A DNA stretch of 14,042 nucleotides from a bacterium (GTDB lineage: Bacteria > CSSED10-310 > JAJRTK01), in the NCBI GenBank assembly GCA_024278345.1, contig JAJRTK010000210.1:1-14042 (forward strand), given 5' to 3'. Positions 1-14,042 of the stretch are shown one piece after another. The position numbers and the translations under genes are program-made. The notes beneath the pieces are model-generated. The model was not told the origin of the DNA, did not search any database, and saw only the letters and a list, made by a program, of their open reading frames with translations. How positions within the stretch are numbered: the stretch's first letter is position 1; every line of letters starts with the position of its first letter.

Positions 1-137
1 CCCTGGTGGGTGCAGGGCAAAGCCCTGCCTGGGGACCGGGGACAGCGTCCCCGGACGACCGCCGAGCAACAGCGAGGCGTTGCCCGGATGCCGGAAACTT
101 CACAATCCTTGAAGCGTCCCGCTTTACGTGGATGGCC
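1..137 (-). repeat. MITE-like structured repeat, copy 1a (short form, cut by window start)
   Basis: Read on the minus strand this is the same element as the complete copy at 9804-10045. It shares the hairpin with stem GCAGGGC/GCCCTGC, a second hairpin at 36-54 (CCGGGGAC, loop AGC, GTCCCCGG), the GCGAGGCGTTGCCCGGA block, and ends at 116-137 in a degenerate terminal repeat that matches about 18 of 22 bases of the intact one. It lacks the 24-bp internal segment present in the complete copy, as does the copy at 13938. It is more diverged than the other copies, so probably an older insertion. The other end lies outside the window. No coding potential is credited here. Confidence 0.8.
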
Positions 138-291
138 GGAAAACGCGTAGCGTACAAAAACGTGGGCTGGGATCCCGTTGCCCTTCGTTGCAACGGGAAG
201 ATGAGCGTGCTCCCTGGTGGGTGCGGGGCGAAGCCCTGCCAGGGGACGGGGGATGGAATCCCCGGATCACCTTCGGGTAACGCACGGCGTG
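138..291 (-). repeat. MITE-like structured repeat, copy 1b (broken, with internal replacement)
   Basis: Starts directly after copy 1a with GGAAAACGCGTAGCGTACAA, which is the reverse complement of the right part of the complete copy near 9984-10003. It then matches that copy almost base for base up to about 291. Around 167-202 the usual segment is replaced by about 35 bases containing a different hairpin (CCCGTTGC at 174-181 pairing with GCAACGGG at 190-197). The copy stops inside the 24-bp segment that distinguishes long from short forms, and neither terminal inverted repeat is present. A short piece at 301-314 (CCCTGGACCCACGT) matches the element in the opposite orientation, so this end is rearranged. 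Confidence 0.8.
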
Positions 292-429
292 CCCCTACAT
301 CCCTGGACCCACGTGGGGGGACTTTTTGGGGGCGGCGCCTGTTTTCCGGTGGCCAGGCCCGGCGTAGCTAGAGCTGCCGGCGGCACCACTTTTTACCGAG
401 ACCCCAAAGGAGAATGGAGGAGCACCCTC
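292..429. other. Leader region of the E1-alpha-like gene
   Basis: No gene is seen between the repeats and the start at 430. The stretch holds the opposite-orientation element fragment at 301-314, G-rich sequence, and a strong ribosome binding site just before the start (AAAGGAGAATGGAGG, about 406-420). I see no convincing -35/-10 pair. Confidence 0.5.
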
Positions 430-1398: not shown

Positions 1399-1470
1399 CG
1401 GCCTCCGTGGCGGCCCGGGACCTGGTGGCTGCGCCTTTTTGGGGGAACAATCCGGCTGGAAGTCGATGAA

Positions 1471-1535
1471 AGGCGAGTAGCGGGCGCCGGCTGGCGCCTG
1501 ATGGGAGCGGAAGGCAATCCAAAAAAGAAGACAAA
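1471..1535 (-). repeat. Small dispersed hairpin repeat, copy A
   Basis: On the minus strand this about 65-base stretch matches 7992-8056: both contain TTCCGCTCCCATCAGGCGCC preceded by a TGTCT/CTTT-type pyrimidine tract and followed by CCGGC(A/G)CCCGCT(A/G)CTCGC. The centre is a hairpin: GGCGCC at 1483-1488 and again at 1493-1498 around a 4-base loop. It lies between the E1-alpha-like gene and lpdA, where it could act on the transcript between the two genes. REP-like; family unknown. Confidence 0.65.
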
Positions 1536-7991: not shown

Positions 7992-8056
7992 CTGTCTCTT
8001 TGTGTTGCGTTCCGCTCCCATCAGGCGCCGTCCGGCACCCGCTGCTCGCTTCTCAC
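7992..8056 (+). repeat. Small dispersed hairpin repeat, copy B
   Basis: Plus-strand counterpart of 1471-1535. The central pair is GGCGCC (8024-8029) and GGCACC (8034-8039) around a 4-base loop; relative to copy A one base of the stem differs, giving a G-U pair in the minus-strand transcript. Both copies sit between genes. Confidence 0.65.
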
Positions 8057-9795: not shown

Positions 9796-9803
9796 GCGAG
9801 ATC
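9796..9803. repeat. Target-site duplication, left copy
   Basis: GCGAGATC immediately outside the left terminal inverted repeat; the identical 8 bases lie immediately outside the right one. Confidence 0.9.
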
Positions 9804-10045
9804 GGGTATCCACGCAAGGCGGGACATTCCCGGGACTGTGGAATCGCAAGCGTCCGGGCAACGCCTCGCTATCGCTCGGCGGGTCACGCCGTGCGTTACC
9901 CGAAGGTGGTCCGGGGGTTCCATCCCCCGTCCCCTGGCAGGGCTTCGCCCTGCACCCACCAGGGAGCGCGCTCCCTGGACCCACGTTTTTGTACGCTACG
10001 CGTTTTCCTTTTTTTTCTGTTCTGTCCCGCCTTGCGTGGATACCC
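9804..10045 (+). mobile_element. Complete MITE-like element (copy 2, long form)
   Basis: 242 bp bounded by perfect 22-bp inverted repeats (9804-9825 and 10024-10045; outer end GGGTATCCACGCAAGG) and flanked by a perfect 8-bp direct repeat. It has no coding capacity for a transposase, so it would be moved in trans. Internally it is a chain of hairpins: GGGGG/CCCCC (9913-9917 with 9924-9928), GCAGGGC/GCCCTGC with a 3-base loop (9937-9953), a 20-bp perfect palindrome at 9959-9978, then T-rich sequence with eight Ts at 10009-10016. A 24-bp segment at 9881-9904 is present here and absent from the copies at 1-137 and 13938. Eight-base duplications are known for several transposase families (for example IS66, ISL3, IS1595, IS256), so the family cannot be named from this alone. 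The hairpins with T-runs could end transcription entering from the glycosyltransferase side. Confidence 0.9.
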
Positions 10046-10053
10046 GCGAGATC
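10046..10053. repeat. Target-site duplication, right copy
   Basis: GCGAGATC, identical to 9796-9803. The element therefore inserted about 90 bases upstream of the operon start, into sequence that was previously continuous. Confidence 0.9.
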
Positions 10054-10130
10054 CAATCCCTTTCACCAACTGGTCATCGGTCATCGGGCCGGCCACAGGC
10101 GGCCGGGACGTGGCGGATGCCATGCCTCAC

Positions 10131-10137
10131 GAGGAGG
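10131..10137 (+). promoter_or_regulatory. Ribosome binding site of the TrlF-type gene
   Basis: GAGGAGG with a 7-base spacer to ATG 10145. It decides the start against the long upstream in-frame extension from 9794, which would be translated from the MITE. Confidence 0.85.
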
Positions 10138-10144
10138 CGCTCTG

Positions 10145-12799
10145 ATGTCCATGAGGCCCGGCTCGAAACAGTTTTTTTCCCACGGCAGTCGCTGGCTTCG
10201 GGCGGACTTCCACCTGCACACCCGGGCGGACAAGGGGTTTTCCCATGCGGGTGATGCCAACGACTTCCACGCAGACTATATCGATGCGCTGAAAGCGGCT
10301 GAGATCGGCGTTGGAGTCATTACCAACCACAACAAGTTCGCTCGCGCCGAGTTCGTGGCCTTGCGGAAAAGAGCCTGGAAGCAGGGAATCTTTCTGCTCC
10401 CCGGAGTGGAACTTTCCGTTGGTGACGGAGCCAACGGGATCCATACGCTGATTGTGTTCAGCGATGAATGGCTGGCGGATGGCCACAACCGCATCCAGCA
10501 GTTCCTCCAAATCGCCTTTGCCGGCCAGGCACCGGGGCAGTACGAAAACTGGAACGGCCGCTGTTCCCTGGGACTGATCGAAACGATCAAGAAGCTCGAA
10601 GATTTTCACAAAGAGTTCTTTCTAGTGTTCGCCCACGTGGAAGACCGAGGTGGACTGTGGCACGAACTGGGCGGCGGCCGCCTTGGGGAACTGGGAGAAG
10701 ATGAGCGTTTCCGCCGGAGGTGCTTGGCTTTTCAGAAAGTCAGAACCCATGACGTGCCGGATCGAGTATGCAGGGCGAAGGTGCGGGGATGGCTTGACAG
10801 TGCTTATCCGGCGGAAGTCGAAGGTTCGGATGCCAAGGCTATCGACCAGGTCGGTCGAGGGCGTTCCTGTTACCTAAAAATCGGTGATTTCACTTTCGAC
10901 GCCGTGCGGTACGCCCTCCTGGATCACGCGCACCGCGTGGCGCCCGAGCCCCCGGGCCATCGACACTCGCACATTCTGAGCATATCCTTCGAGGGCGGCG
11001 TGCTGCAGGGCACGACGATCCATCTCTCGCCCGGGTTGAATACGGTCATCGGTATTCGTGGCAGTGGAAAATCCTCAATTCTGGAAGCGATCCGTTATGC
11101 CATCAACATTCCCTTTGGCGACAGGGCGCAGGACAAGGAGTATAAGCAGCATCTTGTCGATCATGTCCTGGGCGGCGGGGGAAAGGTCACGCTCCAAGCC
11201 ATCGACCGGCGGGGACAGGAATACGAGATCCGACGCATCAACAGGGAAACGCCGGACGTGTACATCGATGGCGTGCTCCAGCCAGGAGTTTCCATACGGG
11301 AAACCGTCTTGCACAAACCCATCTATTTTGGCCAGAAAGATCTTTCCGCGGCTGGCGAGGGGTTTGAAAAGGACCTGGTGGAAAAGCTGGTGGGCGAAAA
11401 AGTGGCTGAGATTCGTTTGCGCATCGAGGCGCAACGTCAAAAGATTCGCGAGGTCGTGGGGCGATTGACGGGCCTTTCCAACACGGAAGAAAAGAAGACG
11501 GAGTACGAGGACCAACGACGAGACGCGGAGTTCAGGCTGGAATTCTTTAGGAACCATGGGGTGGAAGAAAAACTTCAAAAGCAAGTGGATTTTGACGCCG
11601 ACTCCAGGAAGTGCTCTCAAATGGTCGCCTTCTCCAGGAATTATCTTGAAGCGTTGGAGGAGTTTGTCACTCAATATGAAGACGACCTAAAAAACCACCG
11701 CGTTTACACGTCGAAACAGAACAGAGATTTTTTTGACGAGTTTTTTGATGTTTATGATGGGTTGATTGCCTCGTTCATGAAGGTCAAAGAGGCCTTCACG
11801 GCAGGCAAACAGGCATGGATCGGGCTCAAGAAGAAAGCCAAGGACTTCGAGCAGCGCAAGGAGAGTCTCAAGGAAGAATTCGCTGACATCGAAAGAAATT
11901 TGGCCAAGCAGTTGAAGGAGTCGGGAGCGAGAGCGATCCGGTCGGACGAGTTTCGCGAGCTTCGCAAGACCGTGGACAGTGCGGCTCAAATGCTCGAAGC
12001 CCTGGATAGGGATGAGTCGAAGCGAACAAGCCTCCACCGGGAGTTGGTGAGGGAGCTGGCCGTGCTCAACGAGCTCTGGCGCCAAGAGTACAGGGTGATC
12101 GGAGACGAACTAAAGATCGTCAATCAAGGTCACACTTCGCTTGAGATCAAAGCCGAATTCAAGGGGGACAAGACGGCATTCGCGGCGTTCATGAAGGAGC
12201 TGTTCAGAGGCAGCCGCATCCGGCAAGCGAAGTTTTCGGCTCTTGCCAAGGAGTTTCCCGATTTCGGGGCCATGTACAGGAGACTCGAAGAGGCAAAGAG
12301 AATCGTTGGGGATGCGTCGGCCCGGGTTTTCGAGCAGCTATTTACGGATAACCTCGCGGCCCTCTTGACGTGGCAGATCCCCAATCGTTTTCTCATCGAG
12401 TATCGAGGTAAGGACCTGCAACGCCATTCGCTGGGACAGCGCGCCTCGGCGCTGCTCCTGTTCGTTCTTGGCCGGCGGGAGAACGATCTCTTCATGATCG
12501 ACCAGCCTGAGGACGATCTGGACAACCAGACCATCTGCCAGGACGTCATCGAACTCTTGCGGATTCTGAAACGCAAGACCCAATTCATCTTTGTGACCCA
12601 CAACGCCAATTTCCCGGTTCTCGGTGATGCCGAGCAGGTCATTTCTTGTTCCTACTCCGACGATTCCGTTGGCGTGACGACCGGCAGCATCGACCGGCCA
12701 GAGCTCCAGCAACGGGTTGTCGGCATCATGGAAGGGGGCGAGGAAGCGTTCCGCCAGCGCAGAAGGAGATACGAGACATGGAAACCGCGGAACTCCTAG
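10145..12799 (+). CDS. TrlF-type protein: PHP phosphoesterase fused to SMC/Rad50-like ATPase
   Basis: 884 residues. N-terminal PHP metallophosphoesterase (about 10-250): H23-L-H25-T, H62 in TNHNK, E89 in GVELSV, H100 in IHTLIVF, H164 in AHVED. The last PHP motif, usually D-x-H, reads S228-D229-A-K231, followed by LKIGDFTFDAVRYAL. Then an ABC/SMC-type ATPase: Walker A GIRGSGKSS (303-311), a charged coiled-coil arm (about 400-690), signature-like LGQRAS (763-768), Walker B LFMIDQPEDDLDN (782 onward, D786 with E789), and His-switch H819 in FVTHNAN. This architecture is annotated as TrlF-family AAA-like ATPase and occurs in accessory, defence-like loci. The expected behaviour, an ATPase clamp sensing nucleic acid and gating a PHP nuclease/phosphatase, is inference. 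The stop overlaps the next gene by 22 bases, so the two are co-translated. The start is set by GAGGAGG; ATG 10151 is an alternative. No promoter was recognised between the MITE and the start. Confidence 0.88.
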   Translation: MSMRPGSKQFFSHGSRWLRADFHLHTRADKGFSHAGDANDFHADYIDALKAAEIGVGVITNHNKFARAEFVALRKRAWKQGIFLLPGVELSVGDGANGIHTLIVFSDEWLADGHNRIQQFLQIAFAGQAPGQYENWNGRCSLGLIETIKKLEDFHKEFFLVFAHVEDRGGLWHELGGGRLGELGEDERFRRRCLAFQKVRTHDVPDRVCRAKVRGWLDSAYPAEVEGSDAKAIDQVGRGRSCYLKIGDFTFDAVRYALLDHAHRVAPEPPGHRHSHILSISFEGGVLQGTTIHLSPGLNTVIGIRGSGKSSILEAIRYAINIPFGDRAQDKEYKQHLVDHVLGGGGKVTLQAIDRRGQEYEIRRINRETPDVYIDGVLQPGVSIRETVLHKPIYFGQKDLSAAGEGFEKDLVEKLVGEKVAEIRLRIEAQRQKIREVVGRLTGLSNTEEKKTEYEDQRRDAEFRLEFFRNHGVEEKLQKQVDFDADSRKCSQMVAFSRNYLEALEEFVTQYEDDLKNHRVYTSKQNRDFFDEFFDVYDGLIASFMKVKEAFTAGKQAWIGLKKKAKDFEQRKESLKEEFADIERNLAKQLKESGARAIRSDEFRELRKTVDSAAQMLEALDRDESKRTSLHRELVRELAVLNELWRQEYRVIGDELKIVNQGHTSLEIKAEFKGDKTAFAAFMKELFRGSRIRQAKFSALAKEFPDFGAMYRRLEEAKRIVGDASARVFEQLFTDNLAALLTWQIPNRFLIEYRGKDLQRHSLGQRASALLLFVLGRRENDLFMIDQPEDDLDNQTICQDVIELLRILKRKTQFIFVTHNANFPVLGDAEQVISCSYSDDSVGVTTGSIDRPELQQRVVGIMEGGEEAFRQRRRRYETWKPRNS

Positions 12800-13929
12800 A
12801 AATCATTGGCCGGAACGAAGATAGCCGGCACCAGTTCAAGGCCAACGTCACGAATGAGATCTCCCTTGCCCAAGAGATGGTTGCCTTCAGCAATTCGTGG
12901 GGGGGCAGCCTATTCATTGGCGTAAGCGATGATGGCACCTTTTCTGGCCTGACGCGCAACGACATGGGTCGGCTGAGTCAGCTTGTTTCCAACGCGGCCT
13001 CCCAACAGGTGAGACCTCCCATCAATCCCTCGACGGAAAACATCGCCACGCCAGGGGGACTGGTGATGCGGATTGTCGTGCCGGAAGGCGTCAGCAAACC
13101 CTATATGGACAAAAACGGCGTGACCTGGATGAAAAGTGGTCCGGACAAGCGCAAGGCGACGTCCAGGGAAGAGATTCAGCGACTGTACCAGAGCGCCGGT
13201 TTGATCCATGGAGATGAAATCCCGGTTCGGGGTCTGACCCTGGCGGATTTAGATGTCGAATATTTCAGAGCTTTCTTTGAGCGAAGTTTCGGTGAATCCC
13301 TGGAGGATGTCGATCTTCCCTTGGCAGTCTTGCTGGAGAACATGAACCTGATGAAGGAGAGCCTGCTCAATGTGAGCGGAGCATTACTGTTCGCCAAGAA
13401 TCCAAGCTTCAAGTTGCCTGTTTTTATTGTAAAAGCCATTGCATTTCAGGGCAATGACATCCATGAAGAGCATTATATCGACAGCCAGGATATTACTGGA
13501 AAGATAGGAGATGTCTTTCATAAAAGCATGAGCTTCGCTCTTCGAAATACTCGACACATCCAGGGATATCAAAACGTCAACGCCCCGGGTGAACCTGAAA
13601 TCCCGCGAGTTTCGCTTGAAGAGTTGATCGCCAACGCGCTCATCCATCGAGACTATTTTATTTCGTCTCCCGTAAGACTATTCATATTCCGTGATCGCCT
13701 GGAACTTATCAGCCCTGGACATCTCCCGAACAATCTTACCATTGAGAACATCAAGAGAGGGAACTCCAATATCAGGAACCCTATTCTGGCTTCCTATGCC
13801 ACCAAGATTCTACCTTACCGCGGTCTTGGCAGCGGGATTATCCGTGCTTTGAAGGCGTATCCGGATATCGATTTCGACGATGACCTCGACGGGAACCAGT
13901 TCAAAGTCGTGATGGAGCGAAGGGGTTAG
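12778..13929 (+). CDS. AlbA_2 (Schlafen-like) domain protein with GHKL-type ATP-binding domain
   Basis: 383 residues from ATG 12778, with GGAG at 12765-12768, inside the end of the upstream gene. N-terminal AlbA_2 domain (about 1-130): E14-x4-Q19-F-K21 where the family usually has E-x4-E-F-K, then AQEMVAFSNSWGGSLFIGVSDDG. C-terminal domain about 180-383 with EELIANALIHRDY (282-293; the Asn/His-Arg-Asp motif of the divergent AAA_4/HATPase_c_4 group), LELISPGHLP and YRGLGSGI. Many relatives carry a C-terminal winged helix and are called transcriptional regulators or RecG-like; this one stops without it. The Gln at position 19 replaces one acidic residue matching those used by Schlafen RNases, so RNA cleavage is doubtful and nucleic-acid binding more likely (inference). 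The 3' half is visibly AT-richer than the rest of the window, suggesting transfer. It works presumably with the overlapping TrlF-type gene, as sensor, regulator or partner. Confidence 0.87.
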   Translation: METAELLEIIGRNEDSRHQFKANVTNEISLAQEMVAFSNSWGGSLFIGVSDDGTFSGLTRNDMGRLSQLVSNAASQQVRPPINPSTENIATPGGLVMRIVVPEGVSKPYMDKNGVTWMKSGPDKRKATSREEIQRLYQSAGLIHGDEIPVRGLTLADLDVEYFRAFFERSFGESLEDVDLPLAVLLENMNLMKESLLNVSGALLFAKNPSFKLPVFIVKAIAFQGNDIHEEHYIDSQDITGKIGDVFHKSMSFALRNTRHIQGYQNVNAPGEPEIPRVSLEELIANALIHRDYFISSPVRLFIFRDRLELISPGHLPNNLTIENIKRGNSNIRNPILASYATKILPYRGLGSGIIRALKAYPDIDFDDDLDGNQFKVVMERRG

Positions 13930-13937
13930 GAGCAGGG

Positions 13938-14042
13938 GGGTATCCACGCAAGGCGGGACATTCCCAGGACTGTGGAATCGCAAGCGTCCGGGCAACGCCT
14001 CGCTATCGCTCGGCGGTGGTCCGGGGATTCCATCCCCCGTCC
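13938..14042 (+). mobile_element. MITE-like element, copy 3 (short form, cut by window end)
   Basis: Begins with the intact 22-base terminal repeat (13938-13959) and continues nearly identical to 9804 onward, in the same orientation, but lacks the 24-bp segment (9881-9904 in copy 2). The hairpin GGGGAT/ATCCCC is present. It starts exactly 8 bases after the stop codon of the AlbA_2 gene; those 8 bases (GAGCAGGG) are the predicted target-site duplication, but the other end is outside the window. Its hairpins may serve as the operon's transcription end. Confidence 0.88.

What the first reader, a model, noticed from the sequence alone, without database searches (positions are those of the whole stretch)
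9804..14042. TrlF/AlbA_2 operon bracketed by two direct copies of the MITE
The two elements lie in the same orientation immediately outside a two-gene accessory module (90 bp before the first ribosome site region and 8 bp after the last stop). Such brackets could let the module move like a compound element or be lost or amplified by recombination between the copies. No integrase or other genes sit between them. The two copies are of different forms (long and short), so they likely arrived independently rather than by duplication.
Basis: partly seen in the sequence, partly recalled or inferred. Interest (0 to 1): 0.72.

Follow-up and report, generated by a model that had tools for sequence, protein, structure and literature searches.

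The report
Ordinary MITEs beside a TrlFG operon
A two-gene stress or defence operon of a known kind happens to lie between two copies of a short jumping DNA repeat that is scattered hundreds of times through this genome; the left copy shows that it jumped in alone, so there is no sign that the repeats carried the operon here.

Summary
The repeats and genes are real. Copy 2 (9804-10045) is an intact 242-bp MITE with perfect 23-bp inverted ends and its own 8-bp target duplication, gcgagatc. Copy 3 (13938-14042) starts 8 bp after the operon's stop codon, but the contig ends inside it; its right end and target duplication cannot be seen. The element is unusually common here: 222 copies of the end sequence (at most 1 mismatch) in 6.06 Mb. 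An unbiased 0.90-Mb sample holds 93 copies or fragments (46 strong) and 13 neighbouring pairs 0.8-6 kb apart (5 among the strong, all direct). One strong pair brackets a leucyl-tRNA synthetase gene. The bracket is what copy number predicts.

Copy 2's inner and outer flanks match 8/8 (chance about 2e-5). A compound element landing here would not leave that, so compound arrival is rejected; independent arrival is supported. The operon is trlF-trlG of the known 'temperature restriction locus' family: PHP/ABC-type ATPase plus AlbA_2 (Schlafen)-HATPase protein. Its homologues occur without this element near BREX-like genes, inside plasmid type I restriction operons, or alone. The operon looks acquired (GC 0.545 against 0.627 beside it), with the elements probably settling later. 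Loss or exchange by recombination between copies remains possible but unobserved.

The parts
9796..9803 (.). left copy of the 8-bp target-site duplication (gcgagatc) of copy 2
   Evidence: read directly; matched 8/8; chance about 1.6e-5
9804..10045 (+). copy 2: intact 242-bp non-autonomous element (MITE), perfect 23-bp terminal inverted repeats, no transposase
10046..10053 (.). right copy of the 8-bp target-site duplication (gcgagatc) of copy 2
10145..12799 (+). trlF: TrlF family AAA-like ATPase, 884 aa; PHP-like metal-binding motifs (HLH, NHN), Walker A GIRGSGKSS and ABC signature/Walker B read by eye
   Evidence: NCBIfam NF045780 E 3.5e-171, 572 bits against cut-off 350; sequence
12778..13929 (+). 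trlG: SLFN_AlbA_2 plus HATPase_c_4 protein, 383 aa, overlapping trlF by 22 bp
   Evidence: Pfam PF04326 E 1.5e-19 at 14-127 and PF13749 E 3.6e-13 at 297-363
13930..13937 (.). gagcaggg, presumed left target duplication of copy 3; partner not found
   Evidence: read; genome searches; the only exact candidate (C267) belongs to C210 instead
13938..14042 (+). copy 3: left 105 nt of an element of the short subfamily, cut by the contig end
1..295 (-). copy 1 region: two partial, rearranged element copies at the left contig end

Best explanation
A very abundant, apparently lineage-limited MITE family (169-297 bp, about 22-23-bp inverted ends, 8-9-bp target duplications, presumably moved in trans by a transposase not identified here) has inserted mostly as single units throughout this genome. 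Two of these solo insertions lie beside a trlF-trlG operon, one in the 5' gap and one directly after the stop codon. The operon itself is probably an older horizontal acquisition. By analogy with the Photorhabdus temperature restriction locus and with Schlafen RNases found next to BREX systems, its likely job is to stop growth under stress or phage attack: TrlF, an ABC-type ATPase with PHP-like motifs, as sensor or regulator, and TrlG, an AlbA_2/Schlafen protein, as effector. Shown here: element structure, target duplication of copy 2, abundance, common bracketing, operon identity, and absence of the element from the homologous loci tested. Inferred: the acquisition, the order of events, the solo insertion of copy 3 and the function of the operon.
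For: Copy 2 has its own 8/8 target duplication (chance 1.6e-5). Elsewhere in the genome most intact copies likewise have their own 8-9-bp duplications, each with a different sequence. Abundance: 222 ends with at most 1 mismatch; 93 element loci in an unbiased 0.90-Mb sample (46 at 60 bits or more), with 13 neighbour pairs 0.8-6 kb apart at the loose cut-off and 5, all direct, at the strict one. Other brackets hold ordinary genes: leuS in a strict bracket, dus in a loose one. The element gave no hit in 59 other genomes, none in plasmids, and its 22-nt end has no exact match in viral contigs. Operon homologues at 66-70% TrlF identity keep the pair and the overlap but show no element in the stretches held. 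Conjugative IncA/IncC plasmids carry the pair inside a type I restriction operon, and those stretches have no element either. GC of the operon is 0.545 against 0.627 for the rest of the contig; 3% of genome windows are as low. TRL family and phenotype: PMC7554251.
Against: Copy 3's own target duplication could not be checked because the contig ends inside it. No close relative with an empty or occupied site was available. The drop in GC begins next to copy 2, so a boundary role of the elements in acquiring the operon, for example homologous recombination with DNA from a sister strain, is not formally excluded. The low-scoring element hits in the sample may include other hairpin repeats that share sequence, so only the strict counts are secure. 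The transposase was not found.
Confidence: 0.88

Rival explanations
1. A MITE-bounded composite transposon (TIME-COMP-like): a transposase acts on the outer ends of copies 2 and 3 and moves the operon as one unit.
For: Two copies in direct orientation bound a foreign-looking module. MITE-bounded composites are established elsewhere: PMC13367494 and PMC3934969.
Against: Copy 2's inner flank equals its outer flank over 8 bp, which a composite insertion here would not give. The copies belong to different subfamilies. The operon homologues examined lack the element. Such brackets also enclose leuS. No second copy of the operon is in the genome.
Confidence: 0.03
2. The elements act as portable homology: the interval between them is swapped, lost or amplified by homologous recombination between copies, including with incoming sister-strain DNA.
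For: Direct repeats of about 105 nt at high identity lie 4.1 kb apart, and very many further copies exist. GC changes near copy 2.
Against: No junction, empty site or amplification was seen in the assembly. Nothing singles this interval out from the other brackets of the genome. The target duplication surviving on both sides of copy 2 argues that no recombination through copy 2 has replaced either flank since it inserted.
Confidence: 0.06
3. Copy 3 interrupts a larger defence operon, so the 'two-gene module' is an artefact of the contig end. (This can be true together with the best explanation.)
For: The contig ends 113 bp after trlG. In relatives the pair is followed by, or nested in, BREX-like or type I restriction genes.
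Against: Two of the four closest homologues (L045, L046) have no defence genes directly upstream, which suggests that the pair can stand alone, although those loci also end soon after trlG. No contig with the right flank was found.
Confidence: 0.2

Closest known systems
Bacterial MITEs such as MITEPsy1 and MITEAba12 (PMC3189936, PMC6382973)
   Same: Short non-coding elements with inverted ends, mostly under 300 bp, presumed to be moved in trans by a related transposase.
   Different: This family is far more abundant (hundreds of copies), is built of G+C-rich hairpin blocks with indel subfamilies, makes 8-9-bp duplications, and has no identified parent insertion sequence.
TIME-COMP and other MITE-bounded composite elements (PMC13367494, PMC3934969)
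   Same: Two copies of one MITE enclose accessory genes.
   Different: Known composites have a target duplication outside the two outer ends. Here the left copy has its own duplication on both of its sides.
Temperature restriction locus trlR-trlF-trlG of Photorhabdus (PMC7554251)
   Same: TrlF-family ATPase; TrlG with AlbA_2 and HATPase_c_4 domains at the same positions (14-127 and 297-363 here, 14-128 and 298-365 there); gene order trlF-trlG.
   Different: No room for trlR between the upstream gene and trlF; an element lies 99 bp upstream; function untested.
Schlafen RNases linked to BREX and BREX-related systems (PMC12839542) and type I restriction operons of IncA/IncC plasmids
   Same: Schlafen/AlbA_2 protein with a C-terminal histidine-kinase-like ATPase domain; the trlF-trlG pair sits next to PglZ, DUF1156 or restriction genes in relatives.
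   Different: No such partner genes are present in this window; downstream sequence is missing.

Membership tests
MITE | terminal inverted repeats | tested here: met
   Perfect 23-bp ends on copy 2
MITE | target-site duplication | tested here: met
   8/8 at copy 2; 8-9 bp at most other intact copies
MITE | short, non-coding, many copies | tested here: met
   242 bp, no transposase; 222 ends in the genome
MITE | parent insertion sequence with the same ends | tested here: inconclusive
   None seen in about 1.2 Mb of the genome; the ISAzo13 transposase search rang nowhere, controls included, so it shows nothing
MITE-bounded composite (TIME-COMP) | two complete MITE copies enclosing cargo genes | tested here: inconclusive
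   Copy 3 is cut by the contig end
MITE-bounded composite (TIME-COMP) | target duplication outside the composite, not at the single copies | tested here: not met
   Copy 2 carries its own duplication on both of its sides
MITE-bounded composite (TIME-COMP) | same unit found at another site | tested here: not met
   No element near the homologous operons; operon single copy in this genome
TRL operon | TrlF-family ATPase | tested here: met
   NF045780, 572 bits against cut-off 350
TRL operon | TrlG with AlbA_2 plus HATPase_c_4, next to trlF | tested here: met
   architecture as in PMC7554251
TRL operon | small regulator gene trlR (79 aa) | tested here: not met
   Gaps of 191 bp and 99 bp upstream are too short for it; downstream sequence is not held. 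PMC7554251 reports that all three genes are syntenic outside Photorhabdus in only a few genomes, so filing is as a trlF-trlG pair of this family, not as the full three-gene operon
TRL operon | growth arrest at raised temperature | not testable with these tools
   needs an experiment

The most novel reading that the evidence does not exclude
The dense MITE family serves as a genome-wide set of homologous joints through which foreign modules such as trlFG are exchanged between strains of this lineage, so that accessory genes sit in MITE-bounded slots.
Probability: 0.05. Interest if true: 0.55.

Novelty: new member of a known kind. Interest (0 to 1): 0.15.

Why it matters
It is mainly a caution. 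In a genome with about 50-100 MITE loci per Mb, any operon has a fair chance of lying between two copies, and fragmented assemblies tend to break at them, so contigs look bracketed. A matching target duplication on both sides of one copy is a cheap test that separates solo insertion from compound movement. The apparently unnamed MITE family, seen only in this genome among those searched, would be worth cataloguing.

Tried and rejected
Compound element: rejected by the solo target duplication of copy 2. C267 as the sequence after copy 3: it carries GAGCAGGG after an element end, but its element half is the wrong type, and it fits C210, whose end overlaps its start by about 32 nt and carries the same 8-mer; rejected. 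Five other places with copy 3's deletion-junction sequence were checked; none of the right flanks visible there begins with gagcaggg. Parent transposase: no TIR pair 0.8-5 kb apart with a matching target duplication around a gene in the sampled contigs; the ISAzo13 family search gave nothing even in the controls. Promoter or terminator carried by copy 2: no consensus match. Relatives with the same locus: none; the nearest in the phylum are 29% (TrlF) and 35% (TrlG) identical. One Pfam call failed on coordinates and was repeated; one accession was not held in the annotated collections.

Full report
What is there. The window is not an arbitrary slice but the entire contig C134 (14042 bp) of a fragmented 6.06-Mb genome in 550 contigs. 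Both contig ends lie in copies of the repeat. In a sample of every fifth contig, 50 of 176 contig ends lie within 250 bp of an element, as expected where an assembler breaks at a repeat. So the appearance of a module ending at an element on the right is partly made by the assembly.

The element. Copy 2 spans 9804-10045 with perfect 23-bp inverted ends and is flanked on both sides by gcgagatc (9796-9803 and 10046-10053). The chance of an 8/8 match at this base composition is about 1.6e-5. Other intact copies in the genome are 169-297 bp long (one nested composite is 646 bp), and most have 8-9-bp duplications of their own, each of a different sequence. They carry no gene. This is a MITE family. 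It gave no hit in 59 other genomes or in the plasmid collection, and its 22-nt end has no exact match in the viral contigs. No parent transposase was found in about 1.2 Mb of sampled sequence.

How common such brackets are. The end sequence occurs 222 times with at most one mismatch. In an unbiased sample of 0.90 Mb, a profile found 93 element loci, 46 of them with strong scores. Even within these broken contigs, 13 neighbouring pairs lie 0.8-6 kb apart, 9 in the same orientation. Among the strong ones there are 5 pairs, all in the same orientation. One strong pair encloses a leucyl-tRNA synthetase gene, and a loose one a dihydrouridine synthase. A 4-kb interval between two direct copies is therefore ordinary in this genome and does not single out accessory genes.

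History of the two copies. If [copy 2-operon-copy 3] had landed here as one unit, the new duplication would lie outside the pair, and copy 2's inner flank would come from the donor site. Instead the inner and outer flanks of copy 2 are the same 8 bp, so copy 2 inserted here alone. Copy 3 differs from copy 2 by a 24-nt deletion that recurs at several other loci, so it is from another subfamily. For copy 3 the test could not be completed: the contig ends inside it, and the only exact candidate for the far side, C267, was shown to belong to another contig, C210.

The operon. The two genes are trlF (TrlF family ATPase, NF045780, 572 bits against a cut-off of 350) and trlG (AlbA_2 plus HATPase_c_4), overlapping by 22 bp. 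They match the temperature restriction locus of Photorhabdus, where trlG mutations or loss of the locus relieve growth arrest at 36 deg C (PMC7554251). Homologues with 66-70% identical TrlF occur in unrelated bacteria: next to a helicase and PglZ in a Desulfobacterales bacterium, between a helicase and a DUF1156 gene in a Geobacteraceae bacterium, and beside genes with no evident defence role (judged by eye from the reading frames) in two others. On conjugative IncA/IncC plasmids the pair sits between the R and S genes of a type I restriction operon. None of the stretches examined holds the element. [quoted passage not shown]). The likely role here is stress- or phage-triggered growth arrest, but that is inference. 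The operon has lower GC (0.545) than the rest of the contig (0.627), with 3% of genome windows as low, which fits horizontal acquisition but does not prove it.

What remains open. Recombination between direct copies could delete or exchange the interval, as it could at many other places in this genome; nothing observed suggests that it has. The operon may continue past copy 3.

Verdict. Real sequence features of known kinds; the bracket is expected from copy number and shows no sign of function.

Noticed in passing
L127 about 196-349 (G000:C386): A second MITE-like family, about 154 bp, with ends GGGACCTATCA(A/G)ATCC, inserted inside a copy of the first with an apparent 8-bp duplication TGGAAATC; its ends also adjoin element ends near contig ends in L085, L104 and L120.
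   Followed up: partly
window 1-295: Two partial, rearranged element copies in tandem in the opposite orientation at the left contig end.
   Followed up: no
window 1467-1523 and 7999-8055: A 57-nt inverted pair, 84% complementary, unrelated to the MITE; possibly another repeat family.
   Followed up: no
L172 and L173 (IncA/IncC plasmids): trlF-trlG sit between the R and S genes of a type I restriction operon, a position reminiscent of prrC in its host operon (the comparison with prrC is from memory).
   Followed up: partly
L044 8366-9997: A second AlbA_2 plus HATPase_c_4 protein (24% identical to TrlG) just downstream of trlFG and before a DUF1156 gene.
   Followed up: no
G000:C210 end and G000:C267 start: Two contigs joined through one element: ends overlap by about 32 nt and carry the same 8-bp duplication GAGCAGGG; such duplications could be used to scaffold this genome.
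   Followed up: yes
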